From Anaerolineae bacterium (GTDB lineage Bacteria > Chloroflexota > Anaerolineae > UBA4142 > SHND01): 64,000 nucleotides of DNA. The translations under genes and the position numbers were made by a program. Positions 3,035 to 63,265 of this stretch are shown here, in pieces. The notes beneath the pieces are model-generated. The model was not told where the DNA came from, did no database searches, and saw only the letters and a program-made list of their open reading frames with translations. Location of the stretch: contig JAJTXZ010000019.1 of assembly GCA_021463195.1 (NCBI GenBank), positions 1 through 64,000 on the forward strand, read 5' to 3'. The stretch's first letter is position 1. The number at the start of each line of letters is the position of its first letter.

Positions 3035-5778
3035 CGAATTTGGATTCCCGCGTCGAGCGTTACGGCATTATTTGAAATCGGCGTTTGATTCGCGTCCAGC
3101 AGCGGCACGCGCGCGCCGCTCGCTTCGTCATACATTCCAACGAACAGGCGATAATCGCCGGGCGCGAGATCATTCGGTAATTGCAACGTGTATTCGTCCG
3201 TGATGTATTCGTCGGGAAACCAACGATTCGTCGGCAGCGCGCCGTTTTGCGGTATCGAATCGCGCTGCGCGCGGAGAACGCCGTTCGCGTCCACCAAATG
3301 CGCAAACACTTTATAACTCGCGTTCGGCGTTTGATTCGCGCGCCAATATAAGGTCAGCGGAATCGTTTCGCCCGCGCGATATTGATTGCGGTCTAGTTTG
3401 TAACCGAGCAGTTGCAGTGAATCGCCAACGAGCGTGAGTTGAGAATGTTGAATGGTCGGCGCGCTAAATTGGCGCTGCGATTCGCCGAGCGACATACGCA
3501 TTTCGGGCAGCGGCTGTCCATTGTATGATATCTCAAAGGTGATATACCCCGCCGGCGCGGTGGGCGGCAGAGTGAGCGTATGCCGCGCGCGCGCGCTTTG
3601 CGCGGGGTTGAACGCGTCTTGCGCGGCAAACAACGCGCCGTGATACAACCGCGTTTCCGCACCGCGCGCGTCGCGGAGTTTGATTTCCAAAACGCCGTCG
3701 CCGCGTGTCAAGCCCTGCCACCATGTCGAAAACTCTATTACGTCGCCGCCGCGCGGTTCAATATTGTCCACGCCGTAACCCAAAAATTTCGCGCCATCCA
3801 AATCCACCTCCAGCGGACGCGGAATACGCAGCACATCCGAACGCGCGGCTTGCTCTGACGCGCGAACATGCAACGGCAGCGTAACGCGCGCGGCGTCGCC
3901 GACCAACGTTTGCGGCTCTTGCGAATCGCGCGCCCAAGCGTCAAGTTCGAGCGTATATTTCCCCGGCGGCGCGTCGGGCGGAATGAAAATACCTTGCGGA
4001 TCGCGGAACGCGTCATCCGCGCGCGTCGGCGCGCGTCCGCCGAACGGCAAAGTTTCTTGCCGCATCCACACGCGTTCCGTCGCGTCGCGCAGCGTCCACT
4101 CTAACCGAATATTTTCCAACGGCGCGTCGGGCGCCCAATTCAAAATCGCCGCGACAAATTCACCCGCTATCGGCGTATCCAAATAATTCACCGCGCGCAA
4201 TTCATCCGCCGCGCCATATTGCGCCAACGCGAACCGCCGCGTCGCATTGCGCAAACTCGCGCGCCACAACGACGCGACCGGCGTCAGGTCCAAGCGCGCA
4301 AAATCAAGCGTTTCGGTATCGGCGGGATGTCGCGTCAAATAAATCGCCGCGCCTTTTTGCAAAGCCGCGCGCGCGCGCGCGGCGACATCGCTCTGCGAAA
4401 CCAGCTTGAGCTGGTCGCGATAAATCACAATCTTGTCGCGCCGCAAATCGCGCCTTGTGTCGTCCACCGCTTGATAATATTCAAGCGGCGTCAAATCTTC
4501 CCAGGGGCCCAACAGCGTCGCGTTCGGTTCGAGCGGCAGCGCGAGAATTTCTTGCCAACGCGTATCGGCGGCGTCGTTCTGGCTTTGGTCAGTGCGCGCG
4601 AAATTCGTCCACGTCAAAAACGCGACGACGCACGCGGCGCCTAGCAGCAGCGCGCCCGCCAAACCGCGCGACAGCTTGCGCGCGCCCCACCGCGCCTGAA
4701 TCGTATCGCACAACACCGCCAAGCCAATGCCGACCAAAAATAAAAAAGTGAGATACGACGGAATAAAAAAGATTTCGCTGTCCACCACCCAAAAGACCAG
4801 CGCAAAGGCGGTCTCGGCGAGATGCGCGAGCAGCAGCAAAACGAGCAACTGTCGCGGCGGCAGCGAGTCGGGAAAACCGCGCGGCGCGCGTTTCCACGCG
4901 AGCGCGCCTAATCCAAACAGCCCCAGCGCGAAACCGACAACGGTGAATTGTTCGACCAGCAGCGTCAGATAAACTTGGGTAAACCGTTCCCACAGGAAAC
5001 CGGGCGGACCAAATCGCAGCCAGACGGACGCGTTCGACGCGAGAATCATGTCCGCGAAATTGATCGCATGATATTCCACGCCCACAGAGCTATCGCCGCG
5101 CAGCGGAATATACAAATACAACAGCAGCGGCGTTAACAGCGCGACAAGATTCTTGCCGATTTCGCGCGGCTGCCAGAGCGAACGCCCCCCCCCCCACAAC
5201 ACAAAGACCGCCAACGCGGGCGCGAACCAAAGCATCGTGCGATGATGCGTCAGCGAAAATCCGAACGCGAGCGCGACCCACCACAACGGCGCGCGTCCCA
5301 TTCGCCACAGCATCGCCAGCCACAACACGAGGACGATGAAAAAGGAATTGAGCGTATAGACATCGGGAATCACCGCTTGCGACCATTGCACACGCGAGAC
5401 GCCAAACAAGCTCGCCGTAAGCAAGGCGACCGCGCGCCGCGGCGTCACGGTCCGCATTAGCGCGTAAATCAAAACCAACGTCGACGCGCCAAACAGGCCC
5501 GAAAAAACATTCGCGCGATACGCCACCGTGCCCACCGGCATCGCCAGCAGCCACAGTTTCGCCAGTAAAAAATAGAGCGGATAGCCCGTATGGCTCACGC
5601 CGAGGGTATAGATATTGGTTTGAAACTCGCCATAATCCGCGTCCAAAACGCCGGGCGCGGCGGTGAGCGCATAGAGCGTAAAGAACGCGAAAAACAGCCC
5701 CAGCGCCGCCAACGCATCCCAATTCACGCGCAGGGTGTGCAACGTTTCGTCAAATGTGTTTGTGACGCGCTGCGTCAT
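3031..5778 (-). CDS. DUF2723/TMEM260-like membrane O-mannosyltransferase-type protein
   Basis: This protein has 915 residues. The N-terminal membrane half carries DADYGEFQ (46-53) and SHTGYPLY (62-69), the signature layout of the DUF2723 family. That family is related to TMEM260, a GT-C protein O-mannosyltransferase. About ten hydrophobic helices run to about residue 390. The remaining ~500 residues are extracytoplasmic and contain several beta-sandwich modules ending in YRLFVGMYDEASGARV, shared with the downstream gene. The start overlaps the previous gene by ATGA, and the end overlaps the next gene the same way. An 11-G tract (5185-5195) encodes the Gly run in LWGGGRS; a slip there would truncate the protein. 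Likely role: transfer of sugar to a secreted protein or polymer. The family call is good; the substrate is unknown. Confidence 0.8.
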   Translation of the reverse strand: MTQRVTNTFDETLHTLRVNWDALAALGLFFAFFTLYALTAAPGVLDADYGEFQTNIYTLGVSHTGYPLYFLLAKLWLLAMPVGTVAYRANVFSGLFGASTLVLIYALMRTVTPRRAVALLTASLFGVSRVQWSQAVIPDVYTLNSFFIVLVLWLAMLWRMGRAPLWWVALAFGFSLTHHRTMLWFAPALAVFVLWGGGRSLWQPREIGKNLVALLTPLLLYLYIPLRGDSSVGVEYHAINFADMILASNASVWLRFGPPGFLWERFTQVYLTLLVEQFTVVGFALGLFGLGALAWKRAPRGFPDSLPPRQLLVLLLLAHLAETAFALVFWVVDSEIFFIPSYLTFLFLVGIGLAVLCDTIQARWGARKLSRGLAGALLLGAACVVAFLTWTNFARTDQSQNDAADTRWQEILALPLEPNATLLGPWEDLTPLEYYQAVDDTRRDLRRDKIVIYRDQLKLVSQSDVAARARAALQKGAAIYLTRHPADTETLDFARLDLTPVASLWRASLRNATRRFALAQYGAADELRAVNYLDTPIAGEFVAAILNWAPDAPLENIRLEWTLRDATERVWMRQETLPFGGRAPTRADDAFRDPQGIFIPPDAPPGKYTLELDAWARDSQEPQTLVGDAARVTLPLHVRASEQAARSDVLRIPRPLEVDLDGAKFLGYGVDNIEPRGGDVIEFSTWWQGLTRGDGVLEIKLRDARGAETRLYHGALFAAQDAFNPAQSARARHTLTLPPTAPAGYITFEISYNGQPLPEMRMSLGESQRQFSAPTIQHSQLTLVGDSLQLLGYKLDRNQYRAGETIPLTLYWRANQTPNASYKVFAHLVDANGVLRAQRDSIPQNGALPTNRWFPDEYITDEYTLQLPNDLAPGDYRLFVGMYDEASGARVPLLDANQTPISNNAVTLDAGIQIR

Positions 5779-7813: not shown

Positions 7814-8200
7814 ATGACACCGTACTGGTTCTCGAAAAAATTACCCGCTTCGCGGCATGGCATTGAAAATGCGCTGCGGCTCGCGTTTTGGGCGCAAGGA
7901 TTCGGCGATTCATATTTTACCTGCACTCAGCCCGAAACGCCCGTCAAATGCGTCGGTCTGTGGAAATCGGATTTTCCGCTCAACGTGGAATGGACGCCTA
8001 GCGAATATTTCACTGTCACCATGAACGAGCCAAACAAAGACGCGCTCGAAGCCTTTGAGCGCGTGTTGGGACATCACGCCACCGCCGCGTATCGCAACGC
8101 CGAAGGCAAAGTGGTCATTGAATGGCGCGTCAAGGATGCGTCCAACCGTTTTGCCGAACTGGCAAAGAGCGGCGTGACCGAGCTGGAACGTTTATCGTAA
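7814..8200 (+). CDS. Hypothetical protein, 128 residues
   Basis: I do not recognise this protein. It is soluble, with no signal peptide or membrane segment. It has Trp/Phe-rich stretches (YWFSKK, FWAQGF, CVGLWKSDFPLNVEW) in its first half and an amphipathic C-terminal part (FERVLGHHATAAYRNAEGKVVIEWRVKD). The alternation suggests a small alpha/beta domain. It stands alone, divergent from the glycosyltransferase operon, with a good upstream promoter, and is followed by a palindromic repeat element. Codon usage matches the neighbours, so it is likely a real gene. Confidence 0.7.
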   Translation: MTPYWFSKKLPASRHGIENALRLAFWAQGFGDSYFTCTQPETPVKCVGLWKSDFPLNVEWTPSEYFTVTMNEPNKDALEAFERVLGHHATAAYRNAEGKVVIEWRVKDASNRFAELAKSGVTELERLS

Positions 8201-13679: not shown

Positions 13680-15368
13680 ATGATTCGTCACACTCTGGAA
13701 GAACTCTTGCGCGACGCGCTGAGCGCCGCGCAAACGGCCGGCGACCTGCCCACGTTTGAAATTCCGCCCATCGAAATCGCGCGCCCGCCAAAACCGAATA
13801 TGGGCGACTATTCCACGTCGCTCGCGCTCAAACTCGCGGGGACGGCAAAACGCGCGCCGTTGCAAATCGCGCAAAGCGTCGTCAAACATTTTCCCGCGCA
13901 CGCGGCAATTGCCCAAGTCGAAAGCGTCGCGCCCGGTTTTGTCAACCTCACCCTCGCGCCCGCGTGGCTGGCGCAGCAGGTGAACGAAATCAACGCGGCA
14001 GGCGCGCAGTTCGGCAATGTGCCGTTGGGCAACGGCGCGCATGTTCAAATCGAATTCGTCAGCGCGAATCCGACGGGTCCCATGACCGTCGCGTCGGCGC
14101 GCAATATGGCAATCGGCGACACGCTGGCGCGACTTTTGCGCGCGGCGAATTATCGCGTGGCGACCGAGTACTATGTCAATGACGCGGGTTCGCAAGTGCG
14201 TCATCTGGGCGAAAGCATTTACGCGCGCTGCGCGCAGCAGCGCGGCCGCGACGAACCTTTTCCCGACGACGGTTACAAAGGCGAATATGTCAACGACATC
14301 GCGCGCGCGATTCTTGAACGCGACGGCGATACCTATTTGCAAATGGAATATCCCGCCGCTGTCCGCGCGTTGAAAAAAATCGGCGTCAGCATGATGCTGG
14401 AAAAAATCCGCGCGACGCTCGCGCGCGCGGGCGTCGTATTCGACGAATGGTTTTCGGAACAAAGTTTGTACGATTCCGGTTTATTTAATACGATTCTGGA
14501 CAAATTGGCGGCAAAAGGTCTGACCTATGAAAAAGATGGCGCTGTGTGGTTCCAAGCCACCGCGCTAGGTTTGGACAAGGACGCCGTGCTAGTGCGTTCC
14601 GCGCAGGTCGTGAGCGAGCCGGATGAGCGTCCAACATATTTGGCATCCGATTTGCCGTACGTCTGGAACAAGCTGGTGACACGCGGCTTTGACCGCGCGA
14701 TTTATATATGGGGCGCGGACCATCAAGGCGATGTGCCGCGCGTGTTGGCCGGCGCGCAAGCGTTGGGACTTGATCCCAAACGCGTCGTCATTATTATTTA
14801 TCAACTCGTGCGGCTCACGCGCGGCGGCGAAAAAGTCCGCATGTCAAAACGCGCGGGCGAGTTTGATACGCTCGATGATTTGATTGACGATGTAGGCGTG
14901 GACGCGGTGCGCTTTTTGCTCATCACCAGTTCGGCGGACACTTCGATGGATTTTGATTTGCAGCTCGCCGTGCAGCGGTCAAACGAAAATCCGGTGTATT
15001 ACGTCCAATATATGCACGCGCGCATCGCGGGCATTTTGCGCAACGCGGCGGAACAGGGCATCGCGCGCGGCCAAGCCGACGTGAATCTATTGCGACATCC
15101 CGCCGAATTGAATCTAATCAAACAAATGCTCAAGCTGGAAGAAATCATCGAACTCGCCGCGACGAAATTAGAGCCGCATCATTTGCCGCATTACGCGATG
15201 GAATTGGGCAGAGCGTTCAGCGCGTTTTATGACCACTGCCCCATCTTGCCGCCCAAGCAAACCGACGCGGCATTGACGCGCGCGCGGTTAGAGCTCGCGG
15301 TCGCGGCAAAAACGGTTCTCGCGCGCGCATTGGATTTGGTTGGCGTGACCGCGCCAGAGACGATGTGA
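13680..15368 (+). CDS. argS: Arginyl-tRNA synthetase
   Basis: This 562-residue class Ia synthetase charges tRNA-Arg. The N-terminal additional domain (1-115) is followed by EFVSANPTGP and the Rossmann catalytic domain with YYVNDAGSQ. IYIWGADHQGDVPR and the KMSKS-type loop VRMSKRAG follow, and the anticodon-binding helical domain (about 440-562) includes YYVQYMHARI. The HIGH signature is unusual. After ANPTGP, where H-V-G-H is normal, the sequence is M135-T-V-A-S-A-R-N, so both histidines are replaced. Everything else is well preserved and the reading frame is complete. The enzyme is presumably functional, since argS is essential. The start ATG follows the lipoprotein stop closely. Confidence 0.95.
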   Translation: MIRHTLEELLRDALSAAQTAGDLPTFEIPPIEIARPPKPNMGDYSTSLALKLAGTAKRAPLQIAQSVVKHFPAHAAIAQVESVAPGFVNLTLAPAWLAQQVNEINAAGAQFGNVPLGNGAHVQIEFVSANPTGPMTVASARNMAIGDTLARLLRAANYRVATEYYVNDAGSQVRHLGESIYARCAQQRGRDEPFPDDGYKGEYVNDIARAILERDGDTYLQMEYPAAVRALKKIGVSMMLEKIRATLARAGVVFDEWFSEQSLYDSGLFNTILDKLAAKGLTYEKDGAVWFQATALGLDKDAVLVRSAQVVSEPDERPTYLASDLPYVWNKLVTRGFDRAIYIWGADHQGDVPRVLAGAQALGLDPKRVVIIIYQLVRLTRGGEKVRMSKRAGEFDTLDDLIDDVGVDAVRFLLITSSADTSMDFDLQLAVQRSNENPVYYVQYMHARIAGILRNAAEQGIARGQADVNLLRHPAELNLIKQMLKLEEIIELAATKLEPHHLPHYAMELGRAFSAFYDHCPILPPKQTDAALTRARLELAVAAKTVLARALDLVGVTAPETM

Positions 15369-15383
15369 GGCGCCAGCAGATAA

Positions 15384-16013
15384 ATGGAATTTACACTGGG
15401 GGTTTTGGTCGGAATTTTACTTACGCTGTTGATTTTGGGCGCGAGTCTTTTGATATTGCAGCGCCGTTCCATCGCGCCGCCACTATCGCCGCCGCAAAAT
15501 TTTGAGGGCGAACCGGCGGTAACGGTGCTGATGATTGAATCGTTTCTGAATCAGCAGCTGCGCGAAGCATTGGCAGCCGAAACCGTAGCTGAAGTGACAA
15601 ACTCGGCGCAAAAAGCGCCGCGCGTCAAAATCAAACTGAACGATGCCACATTAGATGTGCAAGCCGGACAGCACGCGCGCTTTTACGCGCAGTTGACGGC
15701 GACAGCGTGGAATTTGCCGGTGCAGCTGCGTCCGATTGCGGACATGGTATTTGGGCTACAGGATGGACGCGTGAAAATTAACGTGACCCAAGTGCAGCTC
15801 GGAGGCGTGCGCGTGCCGCACGCGTTGGTAGACCATTTTGTCAGTCAAGTCGTCGCCGCGGCAGAGACAAAATTAAATCATTCGTTAACGCAGCTGCAGC
15901 GCGACACGCGCGCGCAGTTGACGCGCATCGAAACGACCGAAGATTTGATGATTTTAAAATTCACCGCGCCGCGCGCGGCGCAAACCACAGCGTCGCAAGG
16001 AGCGCCTCAATGA
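15384..16013 (+). CDS. Membrane-anchored protein, paralogue of the next gene
   Basis: This protein has 209 residues. A single N-terminal membrane helix (about 5-25, LGVLVGILLTLLILGASLLIL) anchors a domain that faces outward. The domain starts at IESFLNQQLREAL, continues with a beta-rich central part (RVKIKLNDATLDVQAGQHARFYAQL) and ends VRVPHALVDHFVSQV...TKLNHSL and TTEDLMILKF. Each of these blocks has a counterpart in the downstream lipoprotein. The layout (FLNQQL near the start, VGG.RVP, then an amphipathic helix) reminds me of the DUF2993/LmeA-type lipid-binding envelope proteins, but this resemblance is weak. The gene ends in a 4-bp overlap with the next start. Confidence 0.7.
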   Translation: MEFTLGVLVGILLTLLILGASLLILQRRSIAPPLSPPQNFEGEPAVTVLMIESFLNQQLREALAAETVAEVTNSAQKAPRVKIKLNDATLDVQAGQHARFYAQLTATAWNLPVQLRPIADMVFGLQDGRVKINVTQVQLGGVRVPHALVDHFVSQVVAAAETKLNHSLTQLQRDTRAQLTRIETTEDLMILKFTAPRAAQTTASQGAPQ

Positions 16014-16576
16014 GAACAAGCCAAACAGGATTACTCGGAATTATTTTAATCGTGGGCGCGCTCGGGTGCGGAATCTTTTCGGATGCGGCGACCGCAGTCC
16101 CGACGCCGACGCGCCTCGTAAGCATCGCGCCGACGAATCCGCCGCCGACGCGCGCGCCGCTTGCGCCCACCGCGCCGAACGCGCAAAGCGTCAGTATCAG
16201 CGAAAGCGATTTGAATCAACAACTGAATCAAAATCTGCCACCAGGCGGTCAGGTCTCGAATGTGTTTTTGGACTTGCACGCGGAGAATACGGCGAGCATA
16301 AGCGCGACGATACAGTTGAATTCAATTACTTTGCAGCCCACCGCGTCGCTCCAAGCCGCCGTCGTAAATCATCGCATCGCGATTACGGTAACGCGCGTGC
16401 GCGTCGGCGGGTTTGGCGTGCCGAGCAGTATGATTGAACCGCAAATCGCCGATTTGAAAAATATGGCAGAGCGCGAACTCAACGCGCAGTTAGAAAAGTT
16501 GGAACAAACCACCGGATTCAAACTCCAAGCCATCACGACGACCGAAAACGAATTACGCTTGTATTTCGCGCAATAA
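16010..16576 (+). CDS. Lipoprotein, paralogue of the preceding membrane-anchored protein
   Basis: This 188-residue protein has a lipoprotein signal with lipobox GALGC (Cys20), then a Pro/Thr linker (PTPTRLVSIAPTNPPPTRAP), then the same domain as the gene before it. ISESDLNQQLNQNL, ITVTRVRVGGFGVPSSMI, RELNAQLEKLEQTTGF and TTENELRLYF align with the paralogue. The start ATG overlaps the upstream stop (ATGA), so the pair is translated as a unit. One copy is anchored by a helix and one by lipid, which suggests two membrane-tethered forms of one binding domain. The function is unknown. A strong terminator follows. Confidence 0.7.
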   Translation: MRTSQTGLLGIILIVGALGCGIFSDAATAVPTPTRLVSIAPTNPPPTRAPLAPTAPNAQSVSISESDLNQQLNQNLPPGGQVSNVFLDLHAENTASISATIQLNSITLQPTASLQAAVVNHRIAITVTRVRVGGFGVPSSMIEPQIADLKNMAERELNAQLEKLEQTTGFKLQAITTTENELRLYFAQ

Positions 16577-61387: not shown

Positions 61388-61909
61388 TTAAAATTCGACG
61401 CCCGCTTGCGCGAGAATGCCTTTTTGAAACGGATGTTTGATTTCGCGCATTTCGGTCACAAGATCGGCATATTCAATCAATTCGGGCGGCGCGTCGCGTC
61501 CGGTGAAAATCACATGCAGCGTGGAGGGTTTGTTTTCGCGCAGCCACGCAATCACCGCGTTCACATCCAACCAACCGTAATGAAACGCGTACGTGATTTC
61601 GTCCAACGCCAGCACATCGTACGCGCCGCTCGCGATTTTCTCTTGCGCCAACGCCCACGCCTGCCGCGCCTTGTCGGCGGACGCGTCCAAATCTTTCGAG
61701 GTCCACGTAAAACCATCGCCGAGCGCGTGCCATTCAATCTCCAATTTTTTCGCCGCGCGAATTTCGCCCCAGTTGCCCGTTTCAGCTTTGATAAATTGCA
61801 CGACACAGACGCGCATTTGACGCCCCCACGCGCGCAGCAGCGTGCCAAGCATCGCCGTCGTTTTGCCTTTGCCGTTACCCGTATTGACCATCACCAATCC
61901 GTATCGCAT
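61388..61909 (-). CDS. cobO: Cob(I)yrinic acid a,c-diamide adenosyltransferase
   Basis: This 173-residue CobA/CobO/BtuR-type ATP:corrinoid adenosyltransferase attaches the 5'-deoxyadenosyl ligand to cob(I)alamin or its precursors. The modified P-loop [14 protein letters not shown] (9-22) is diagnostic. [31 protein letters not shown] and [20 protein letters not shown] follow as expected. I use ATG 61909, which has AAAGGAGG just upstream; the frame to 61936 adds only basic residues. The start lies 35 bp inside the end of cobU, so the genes are translationally linked. Confidence 0.95.
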
Positions 61910-62495
61910 ATTCCTCCTTTTCGCGCGTTTGGACACGCGCCGAATTTTTTATCTCGATCGGCAAACCCGCCACCATCAAAATGACGTGACTCGCGGCTTG
62001 CGCCACGTATGCGTTCACGCGCCCCAAGACATCGCGAAAATGTCGCGCCAGCGCGTTTTCCGGCACAATGCCCCAGCCCACTTCATTGGACACGAGCAGC
62101 AAAACAATGCCGCGCTGACGCGCCCACGCTAAAATCAAATCCAATTGCGCAAACAACCGCTGCTCCAGCTGCGCGGCGTCGGCGAGCATTTCGTTTGTCG
62201 CCCACAAAGTCAAACAATCGAGCAAAATCAGCTGCGGCGCGCGTTCCAAGGCCGCAAGCGCGCGCGGAATATCGCGCGGCGCCTCGAGCGTCTCCCACTC
62301 GGGCGGACGCGTCGCGCGATGTTGAACAATGCGTTCGCGCATCTCGTCGTCCAACGCTTGGGCCGTGGCAATAAACAAAACGCGCTTGGCTTGCGCGCGC
62401 GCCCACTGTTCCGCGTACGCGGATTTGCCGCTGCGCGCGCCGCCAAGCACAAAAACGACTTCGGCTTGCAGAGTCTGCGTTTCAGAATGAACCAT
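61875..62495 (-). CDS. cobU: Adenosylcobinamide kinase / adenosylcobinamide-phosphate guanylyltransferase
   Basis: This 206-residue bifunctional enzyme of nucleotide-loop assembly phosphorylates adenosylcobinamide and adds GMP. The P-loop is GGARSGKS (18-25). [12 protein letters not shown] contains the His (His59) that carries GMP, and [15 protein letters not shown] and [21 protein letters not shown] complete the motif set. The start is ATG 62495, which shares its A with the TGA of the upstream cbiR-like gene. An open frame to 62735 lies inside that gene. Product GDP-cobinamide is the substrate of CobS, encoded upstream. Confidence 0.95.
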
Positions 62496-63265
62496 CAGCT
62501 GTTTATTTCCAACACACGCTCGAGTGTTTCGAGCGACGTAAAAAAATCGGTTTCGCCAAACACTTCGAGCGTCACAACGCCGCGATAATTTTCGCGGCGC
62601 AGCGCCGCAAGCGCCGCCGCGAGTTGCGCTTGCGATTGACGCGTCAACGCGGAATGGTCGCGCGCGCCGACACCGTGTAAATGAATGACGCGCGTCTGCG
62701 GCAAATGGGCGGCGAGATGCGGCAGCGGATCGCATTGATTCAACCAGAAATGGCCAATATCAATGCAGCGGCTCGCGCGCAGCTCCGCGACTATTTCTTG
62801 AAAATACGCGGGGTCTCACGCTTCCACATTCTCAACGCACACCCGCGCCGCGTCGCCGACCCATGCAATCACCTGCGCCAGCGCGCGCCCAGCTTCCGCG
62901 CGCCAACGCGCGACGCGCGCGGCGGACGTGTCTCGCATCAACGCGCGCCCGTCCAAATGCGCGATATACGCGTACGGATACAAACCGCGCGTAGCGTCAA
63001 TCGCGCGGCGGTTTTGGTCGCATGCTTGTTCGTCATGCAAATTCATATCGCGCGGCAGATGCACCGTAAACGTCAGCGCATTCTCGTCCGCGATTTTATT
63101 CAACGCGGCGAGCGTGTCGCGCGTCGGAAAATTCGAGCCGAAATTTTCCGCCTCAAACAGCACAAGTTCGATGTCATCCACGCGCCCCGCGAGACGACGC
63201 GCGTTCGTCACGAGGTCAGCGGGATAAACAAAAGAGGTGGAACCGAGCCGAAAAGATTTTTGCAT
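62495..63265 (-). pseudogene. cbiR: CbiR-like cobamide-remodelling enzyme, interrupted by in-frame TGA
   Basis: The frame from ATG 63265 (MQKSFRLGSTSFVYPADL) to the stop at 62495 is continuous except for one TGA (62818-62816). The 256-residue product is a TIM barrel of the AP endonuclease 2/sugar-phosphate-isomerase superfamily. FRLGSTSFVYPADLVTNARRL, DDIELVLFEAENFGSN and LTFTVHLPRDMNL are like CbiR, the Akkermansia enzyme that hydrolyses cobamides for remodelling. Its position between cobS and cobU supports this. After CVENVEA the TGA is followed in the same frame by DPAYFQEIVAELRASRCIDIGHFWLNQ and RVIHLHGVGARDHSAL, clearly the rest of the same protein. TGA may be a mutated TGG (Trp). It could be a pseudogene, a sequencing error or read-through. 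Confidence 0.75.

What the first reader, a model, noticed from the sequence alone, without database searches (positions are those of the whole stretch)
62495..63265. CbiR-like gene in the cobamide cluster split by one in-frame TGA
Seen: TGA at 62818-62816 interrupts an otherwise continuous 256-codon frame; both sides match one TIM-barrel protein and the 3' part still overlaps the cobU start. Known: CbiR hydrolyses cobamides for remodelling. Inference: a fresh nonsense change (TGG to TGA would be a Trp), read-through, or an error. If real, remodelling ability would be switched off while salvage genes stay intact.
Basis: partly seen in the sequence, partly recalled or inferred. Interest (0 to 1): 0.6.

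Follow-up and report, generated by a model that had tools for sequence, protein, structure and literature searches.

The report
Vitamin-remodelling gene cut by stop codon
A gene for an enzyme that takes vitamin B12-like cofactors apart for re-use carries a single premature stop codon, most likely an ordinary recent loss-of-function change, although a sequencing error cannot be ruled out.

Summary
On the minus strand, ATG 63265 to TGA 62495 is one CbiR gene with a single in-frame TGA (62818-62816) at codon 150. Its two parts match consecutive stretches of the CbiR model NF041277 (122 and 100 bits; 235 read through). No other listed match over the family cut-off in the scanned genomes has an internal stop, and the closest relatives have a TGG Trp codon there. 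The gene sits in the conserved cobS-cbiR-cobU order, and apart from the TGA its 3' part is no more eroded than intact homologues. TGA is an ordinary stop in this genome; no suppressor tRNA or distinctive SECIS was found. tRNA-Sec and selB exist, but selA is frameshifted in the assembly and near homologues have Trp, not Cys, so a selenoprotein is unlikely. Best reading: a recent nonsense change that ends CbiR after five of eight barrel strands. The genome lacks CbiZ and CbiC, and a genus mate lacks cbiR at the same place, so the gene looks dispensable. No reads or second assembly were available; a consensus error is the main rival. The base to check is 62816, not 62817. Interest is low.

The parts
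62495..63265 (-). cbiR, interrupted; ATG 63265 to terminal TGA 62497-62495
   Evidence: NF041277, 234.6 bits read through; neighbours cobS and cobU
62816..62818 (-). in-frame TGA, codon 150; Trp (TGG) in the nearest relatives
62819..63265 (-). translated 5' part, 149 codons, first five barrel strands
   Evidence: NF041277 positions 1-147, 122.1 bits; model
62495..62815 (-). 3' part after the stop (106 codons and terminal stop), last three strands and most conserved His/Asp/Glu
   Evidence: NF041277 positions 150-248, 100.4 bits; invariant columns
61875..62495 (-). cobU, intact; ATG overlaps the cbiR terminal stop by one base
   Evidence: PF02283, 202 bits; sequence
61388..61936 (-). cobA/cobO adenosyltransferase, intact
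   Evidence: PF02572, 215 bits
63392..64000 (-). cobS, intact, runs beyond the window end
   Evidence: PF02654, 145 bits for the part in the window; full frame in L123

Best explanation
cbiR, a cobamide-remodelling phosphodiesterase gene between cobS and cobU, has acquired one nonsense codon in place of an ancestral Trp codon, so recently that nothing else has decayed. Translation stops after codon 149; the product lacks three of eight barrel strands and most conserved metal-ligand residues and should be inactive. The cell could then not open imported cobamides through CbiR and would depend on cobinamide or ready-made cobamides, using the intact cobA, cobU and cobS. Shown: the stop, the gene identity, Trp in relatives, intact neighbours, no CbiZ, no CbiC. 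Inferred: loss of activity, the physiological effect, and that the base is real in the population.
For: Both parts match one equivalog model in register. 0 of 19 other places in 60 related genomes, and no other listed match over the cut-off among 298 class genomes, has an internal stop. The eight nearest genomes have Trp at the site; all 12 Trp homologues use TGG. TGA ends 58 of 180 long ORFs. The 3' part deviates at 1 of 25 conserved columns, as in intact homologues. cbiR is optional in the genus: G005 has cobS next to cobU without it.
Against: No reads and no second genome of the species were available. The lack of any further decay is also what an error or a translated codon would give.
Confidence: 0.58

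Rival explanations
1. The TGA is a consensus error, or a base from a minority strain, in a draft assembly of 143 contigs; the organism has an intact cbiR.
For: One base explains everything and the rest of the gene is intact. Another gene of the same genome, selA, is frameshifted at a run of nine G while 4 of 5 genus mates have it whole.
Against: The site is not in a homopolymer. 11 of 13 runs of eight or more G or C in 464 kb keep the coding frame across them, so the assembly is not generally error-prone there. A scan for same-frame stops with coding signal on both sides found few candidates, and the ten that I printed look like separate neighbouring genes by eye.
Confidence: 0.3
2. The UGA is partly read through by tRNA-Trp, so that some full-length CbiR is made and the gene stays useful.
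For: Trp is the residue of the nearest relatives; no other decay. The tRNA-Trp D stem has one mismatched pair, of unknown effect.
Against: tRNA-Trp is CCA with five anticodon-stem pairs, not the four-pair form that raises UGA readthrough in E. coli (PMC13092985, passages). No UCA anticodon other than tRNA-Sec was found. No other homologue keeps a TGA.
Confidence: 0.06
3. The UGA encodes selenocysteine.
For: selB (345 bits) and tRNA-Sec (70.6 bits) are in the genome. 6 of 35 distinct homologues have Cys at the site.
Against: The nearest homologues have Trp. The hairpin after the UGA is no better than shuffles. A relaxed bSECIS test is met by 123 of 150 ordinary TGG sites, and by this one only with a below-median energy. 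selA is frameshifted in the assembly. No homologue carries TGA.
Confidence: 0.02
4. Two separate genes or a restart give a two-piece enzyme.
For: Nothing here; split barrels are known (recalled).
Against: The first in-frame start after the stop is a TTG 24 codons on, which would leave out invariant D169 and H172. No relative is split.
Confidence: 0.02

Closest known systems
CbiR, cobamide-remodelling phosphodiesterase (Akkermansia muciniphila Amuc_1679; NF041277; PMC7733943)
   Same: Family score, TIM-barrel fold, conserved His/Asp/Glu, place among cob genes
   Different: One in-frame TGA at codon 150; activity untested
Nonsense pseudogenes in general
   Same: One stop in an otherwise intact frame, gene dispensable in the genus
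   Different: No second inactivating change; base not verified by reads
Bacterial selenoproteins
   Same: In-frame TGA; selB and tRNA-Sec in the genome
   Different: Trp rather than Cys in near homologues, no distinctive SECIS, selA frameshifted in the assembly

Membership tests
CbiR (NF041277) | score over the curated cut-off of 105 bits | tested here: met
   234.6 bits read through; 122.1 for the 5' part alone, 100.4 (below the cut-off) for the 3' part alone
CbiR (NF041277) | conserved His, Asp and Glu of the AP endonuclease 2 superfamily | tested here: met
   H69, H103, E145, D169, H172, H195, H197, D203, H204, E234 invariant in 28 rows, own row included; those after E145 lie behind the stop
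CbiR (NF041277) | encoded next to cobamide genes | tested here: met
   cobS, cobU and cobA adjacent
CbiR (NF041277) | uninterrupted frame | tested here: not met
   TGA at codon 150
CbiR (NF041277) | cobamide hydrolysis | not testable with these tools
   needs an assay
Selenoprotein | Sec machinery complete | tested here: inconclusive
   selB and tRNA-Sec present; selA frameshifted in the assembly
Selenoprotein | Cys in homologues at the TGA site | tested here: inconclusive
   6 of 35 distinct homologues Cys, but Trp in the eight nearest genomes
Selenoprotein | bSECIS hairpin after the TGA | tested here: inconclusive
   MFE hairpin z about 0.4, and a relaxed model that does not discriminate
UGA=Trp genetic code | TGA not used as a stop | tested here: not met
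   TGA ends 58 of 180 long ORFs and cobS and cbiR themselves
UGA=Trp genetic code | tRNA-Trp(UCA) or a four-pair-stem tRNA-Trp(CCA) | tested here: not met
   one tRNA-Trp, CCA, five anticodon-stem pairs

The most novel reading that the evidence does not exclude
The UGA in cbiR is decoded rather than obeyed, as Trp or selenocysteine, so that the amount of remodelling enzyme is set by readthrough while the gene stays under selection.
Probability: 0.05. Interest if true: 0.7.

Novelty: new member of a known kind. Interest (0 to 1): 0.2.

Why it matters
If real, it is a snapshot of a salvaging bacterium losing cobamide remodelling while keeping the assembly genes, in a genus where some members already lack cbiR. 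That would narrow the cobamides it can use. As a genomic event it is an ordinary nonsense allele.

Tried and rejected
Changed genetic code: rejected on TGA stop usage and the tRNA set. Suppressor tRNA: none among the loci of the 42 tRNA matches plus tRNA-Sec; a tRNA on unassembled sequence could be missed. Formate dehydrogenase as a positive control for Sec use: 11 matches, none with an internal stop, so no SECIS control from this genome was obtained. RNA families at 61-64 kb: none up to E 1. Genome contigs: one distant relative only. Frameshift scan by coding potential: 19 candidates, but the selA locus put in as a positive control was not detected, so it says little. In-frame-stop scan of 464 kb: 1 candidate at the strictest setting, at which the cbiR stop itself was missed, and 15 to 25 at looser settings, cbiR among them; I printed ten others and judged them by eye, without a database search, to be neighbouring separate genes; 14 of the loosest list were not examined. 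The bSECIS test as I coded it does not discriminate.

In the residue count, 46 rows became 36 by dropping rows over 97% identical to another (mostly the same gene fetched twice); five weak matches (L016-L020) were left out of that alignment.

Full report
What is there. Between cobS and cobU on the minus strand lies a frame from ATG 63265 to TGA 62495 that is open except for a TGA at 62818-62816, codon 150. NCBIfam names it CbiR: 122.1 bits for the part before the stop (profile 1-147), 100.4 bits for the part after it (150-248), 234.6 bits read through, cut-off 105. It is the only match by protein search in its genome of 4,720,749 bases and 143 contigs; the family search finds 2 matches there, the other not among the listed rows. 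The cobU ATG overlaps the terminal TGA by one base.

Relatives. Of 60 genomes searched (own included), 18 have a match at E 0.001; none of the 19 other listed places has an internal stop. Of 298 genomes drawn from the class (own included), 246 have some match to the family and 83 one over the cut-off; among the listed matches over the cut-off only the own one has an internal stop, and one match under the cut-off (G199) has a TAG. The eight nearest genomes have Trp at the site. Across 35 distinct homologues the residues are Tyr 14, Trp 12, Cys 6, Phe 3; all 12 Trp codons are TGG.

Decay. At columns where at least 85% of the others agree, the own sequence deviates at 3 of 39 before and 1 of 25 after the stop; the intact homologues range from 0 to 10 and from 0 to 5. 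Coding signal is positive on both sides of the stop, and the first start codon comes 24 codons later. Against this, identity to genus mate G002 is 0.62 before and 0.54 after the stop, a slight lag of the 3' part. So the event is recent, or the codon is translated, or the base is wrong.

Structure. A model from 28 sequences of this window and fetched loci has mean pLDDT 95.7 and eight strands in barrel order. The nearest solved structures are a D-tagatose 3-epimerase-like protein and other epimerases, with endonuclease IV further down. The stop follows strand 142-145, which ends with invariant E145. Lost with the tail are D169, H172, H195, H197, D203, H204 and E234. [quoted passage not shown] I did not map its residue numbers onto these.

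Surroundings. cobA, cobU and cobS match their families; cobS and an ABC permease (by eye) continue beyond the window on the same contig. The order cobS-cbiR-cobU is kept in most loci examined; L013 has another order, and some loci end too soon to tell. In genus mate G005 cobS abuts cobU with no cbiR. G001's contig ends inside cobU, and G004 has no cobU match. CbiZ is absent from the own genome and present in 1 of 6 genus genomes, G003. CbiC, one marker of corrin-ring synthesis, is absent from all 6. This looks like a salvaging genus in which CbiR is optional, on the strength of single marker families.

Decoding. selB and tRNA-Sec are present, which made selenocysteine worth testing. The hairpin after the TGA is no better than shuffles. 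A test after the bSECIS model described in PMC13188914 (passages read) is met by 123 of 150 ordinary TGG sites, median best energy -12.7, and by this site with -9.4 kcal/mol, so it neither supports nor excludes. Near homologues have Trp. selA is frameshifted in the assembly at a run of nine G; 4 of 5 genus mates and G012 have it whole. The formate dehydrogenases found carry no TGA. tRNA-Trp is CCA with five anticodon-stem pairs, so the four-pair route of PMC13092985 (passages read) does not apply. TGA ends 58 of 180 long ORFs in 464 kb.

Verdict. A recent nonsense allele of cbiR is the best reading (0.58), a consensus error the main rival (0.30). Premature termination could also lower cobU translation because the two genes overlap; this is inference.

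Noticed in passing
L145 (G000:C124, about 15085-16163, minus strand): selA of the same genome is frameshifted at a run of nine G; 4 of 5 genus mates have it whole, and the three whose motif I could read have no such run. Slippage in a G tract (a possible on-off switch of Sec use) or an assembly error.
   Followed up: partly
window 5185, 7451, 9505; L127:16478, L133:11513, L140:11659, L142:13718: Runs of 10-11 G or C inside genes, mostly keeping the frame (11 of 13 runs of eight or more). In the 400-kb sample 5 runs have 10-11 bases against 7 with 7-9, fewer short ones than a random decline would give.
   Followed up: partly
L119 about 4600-4615 (G005:C286): Genus mate G005 has cobS directly next to cobU with no cbiR between them.
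   Followed up: yes
L121 4391-5310 (G002:C24): cobS of genus mate G002 matches in two pieces about 150 bases apart, a possible insertion or frameshift near its 3' end.
   Followed up: no
L109 (G000:C83, about 8115-8188): The single tRNA-Trp has one mismatched pair in its D stem as drawn by ARAGORN; effect unknown.
   Followed up: no
L125 18775 (minus strand): A PIN-domain-like gene is followed in the same frame by a short stretch that reads like the tail of ClpB (by eye).
   Followed up: no
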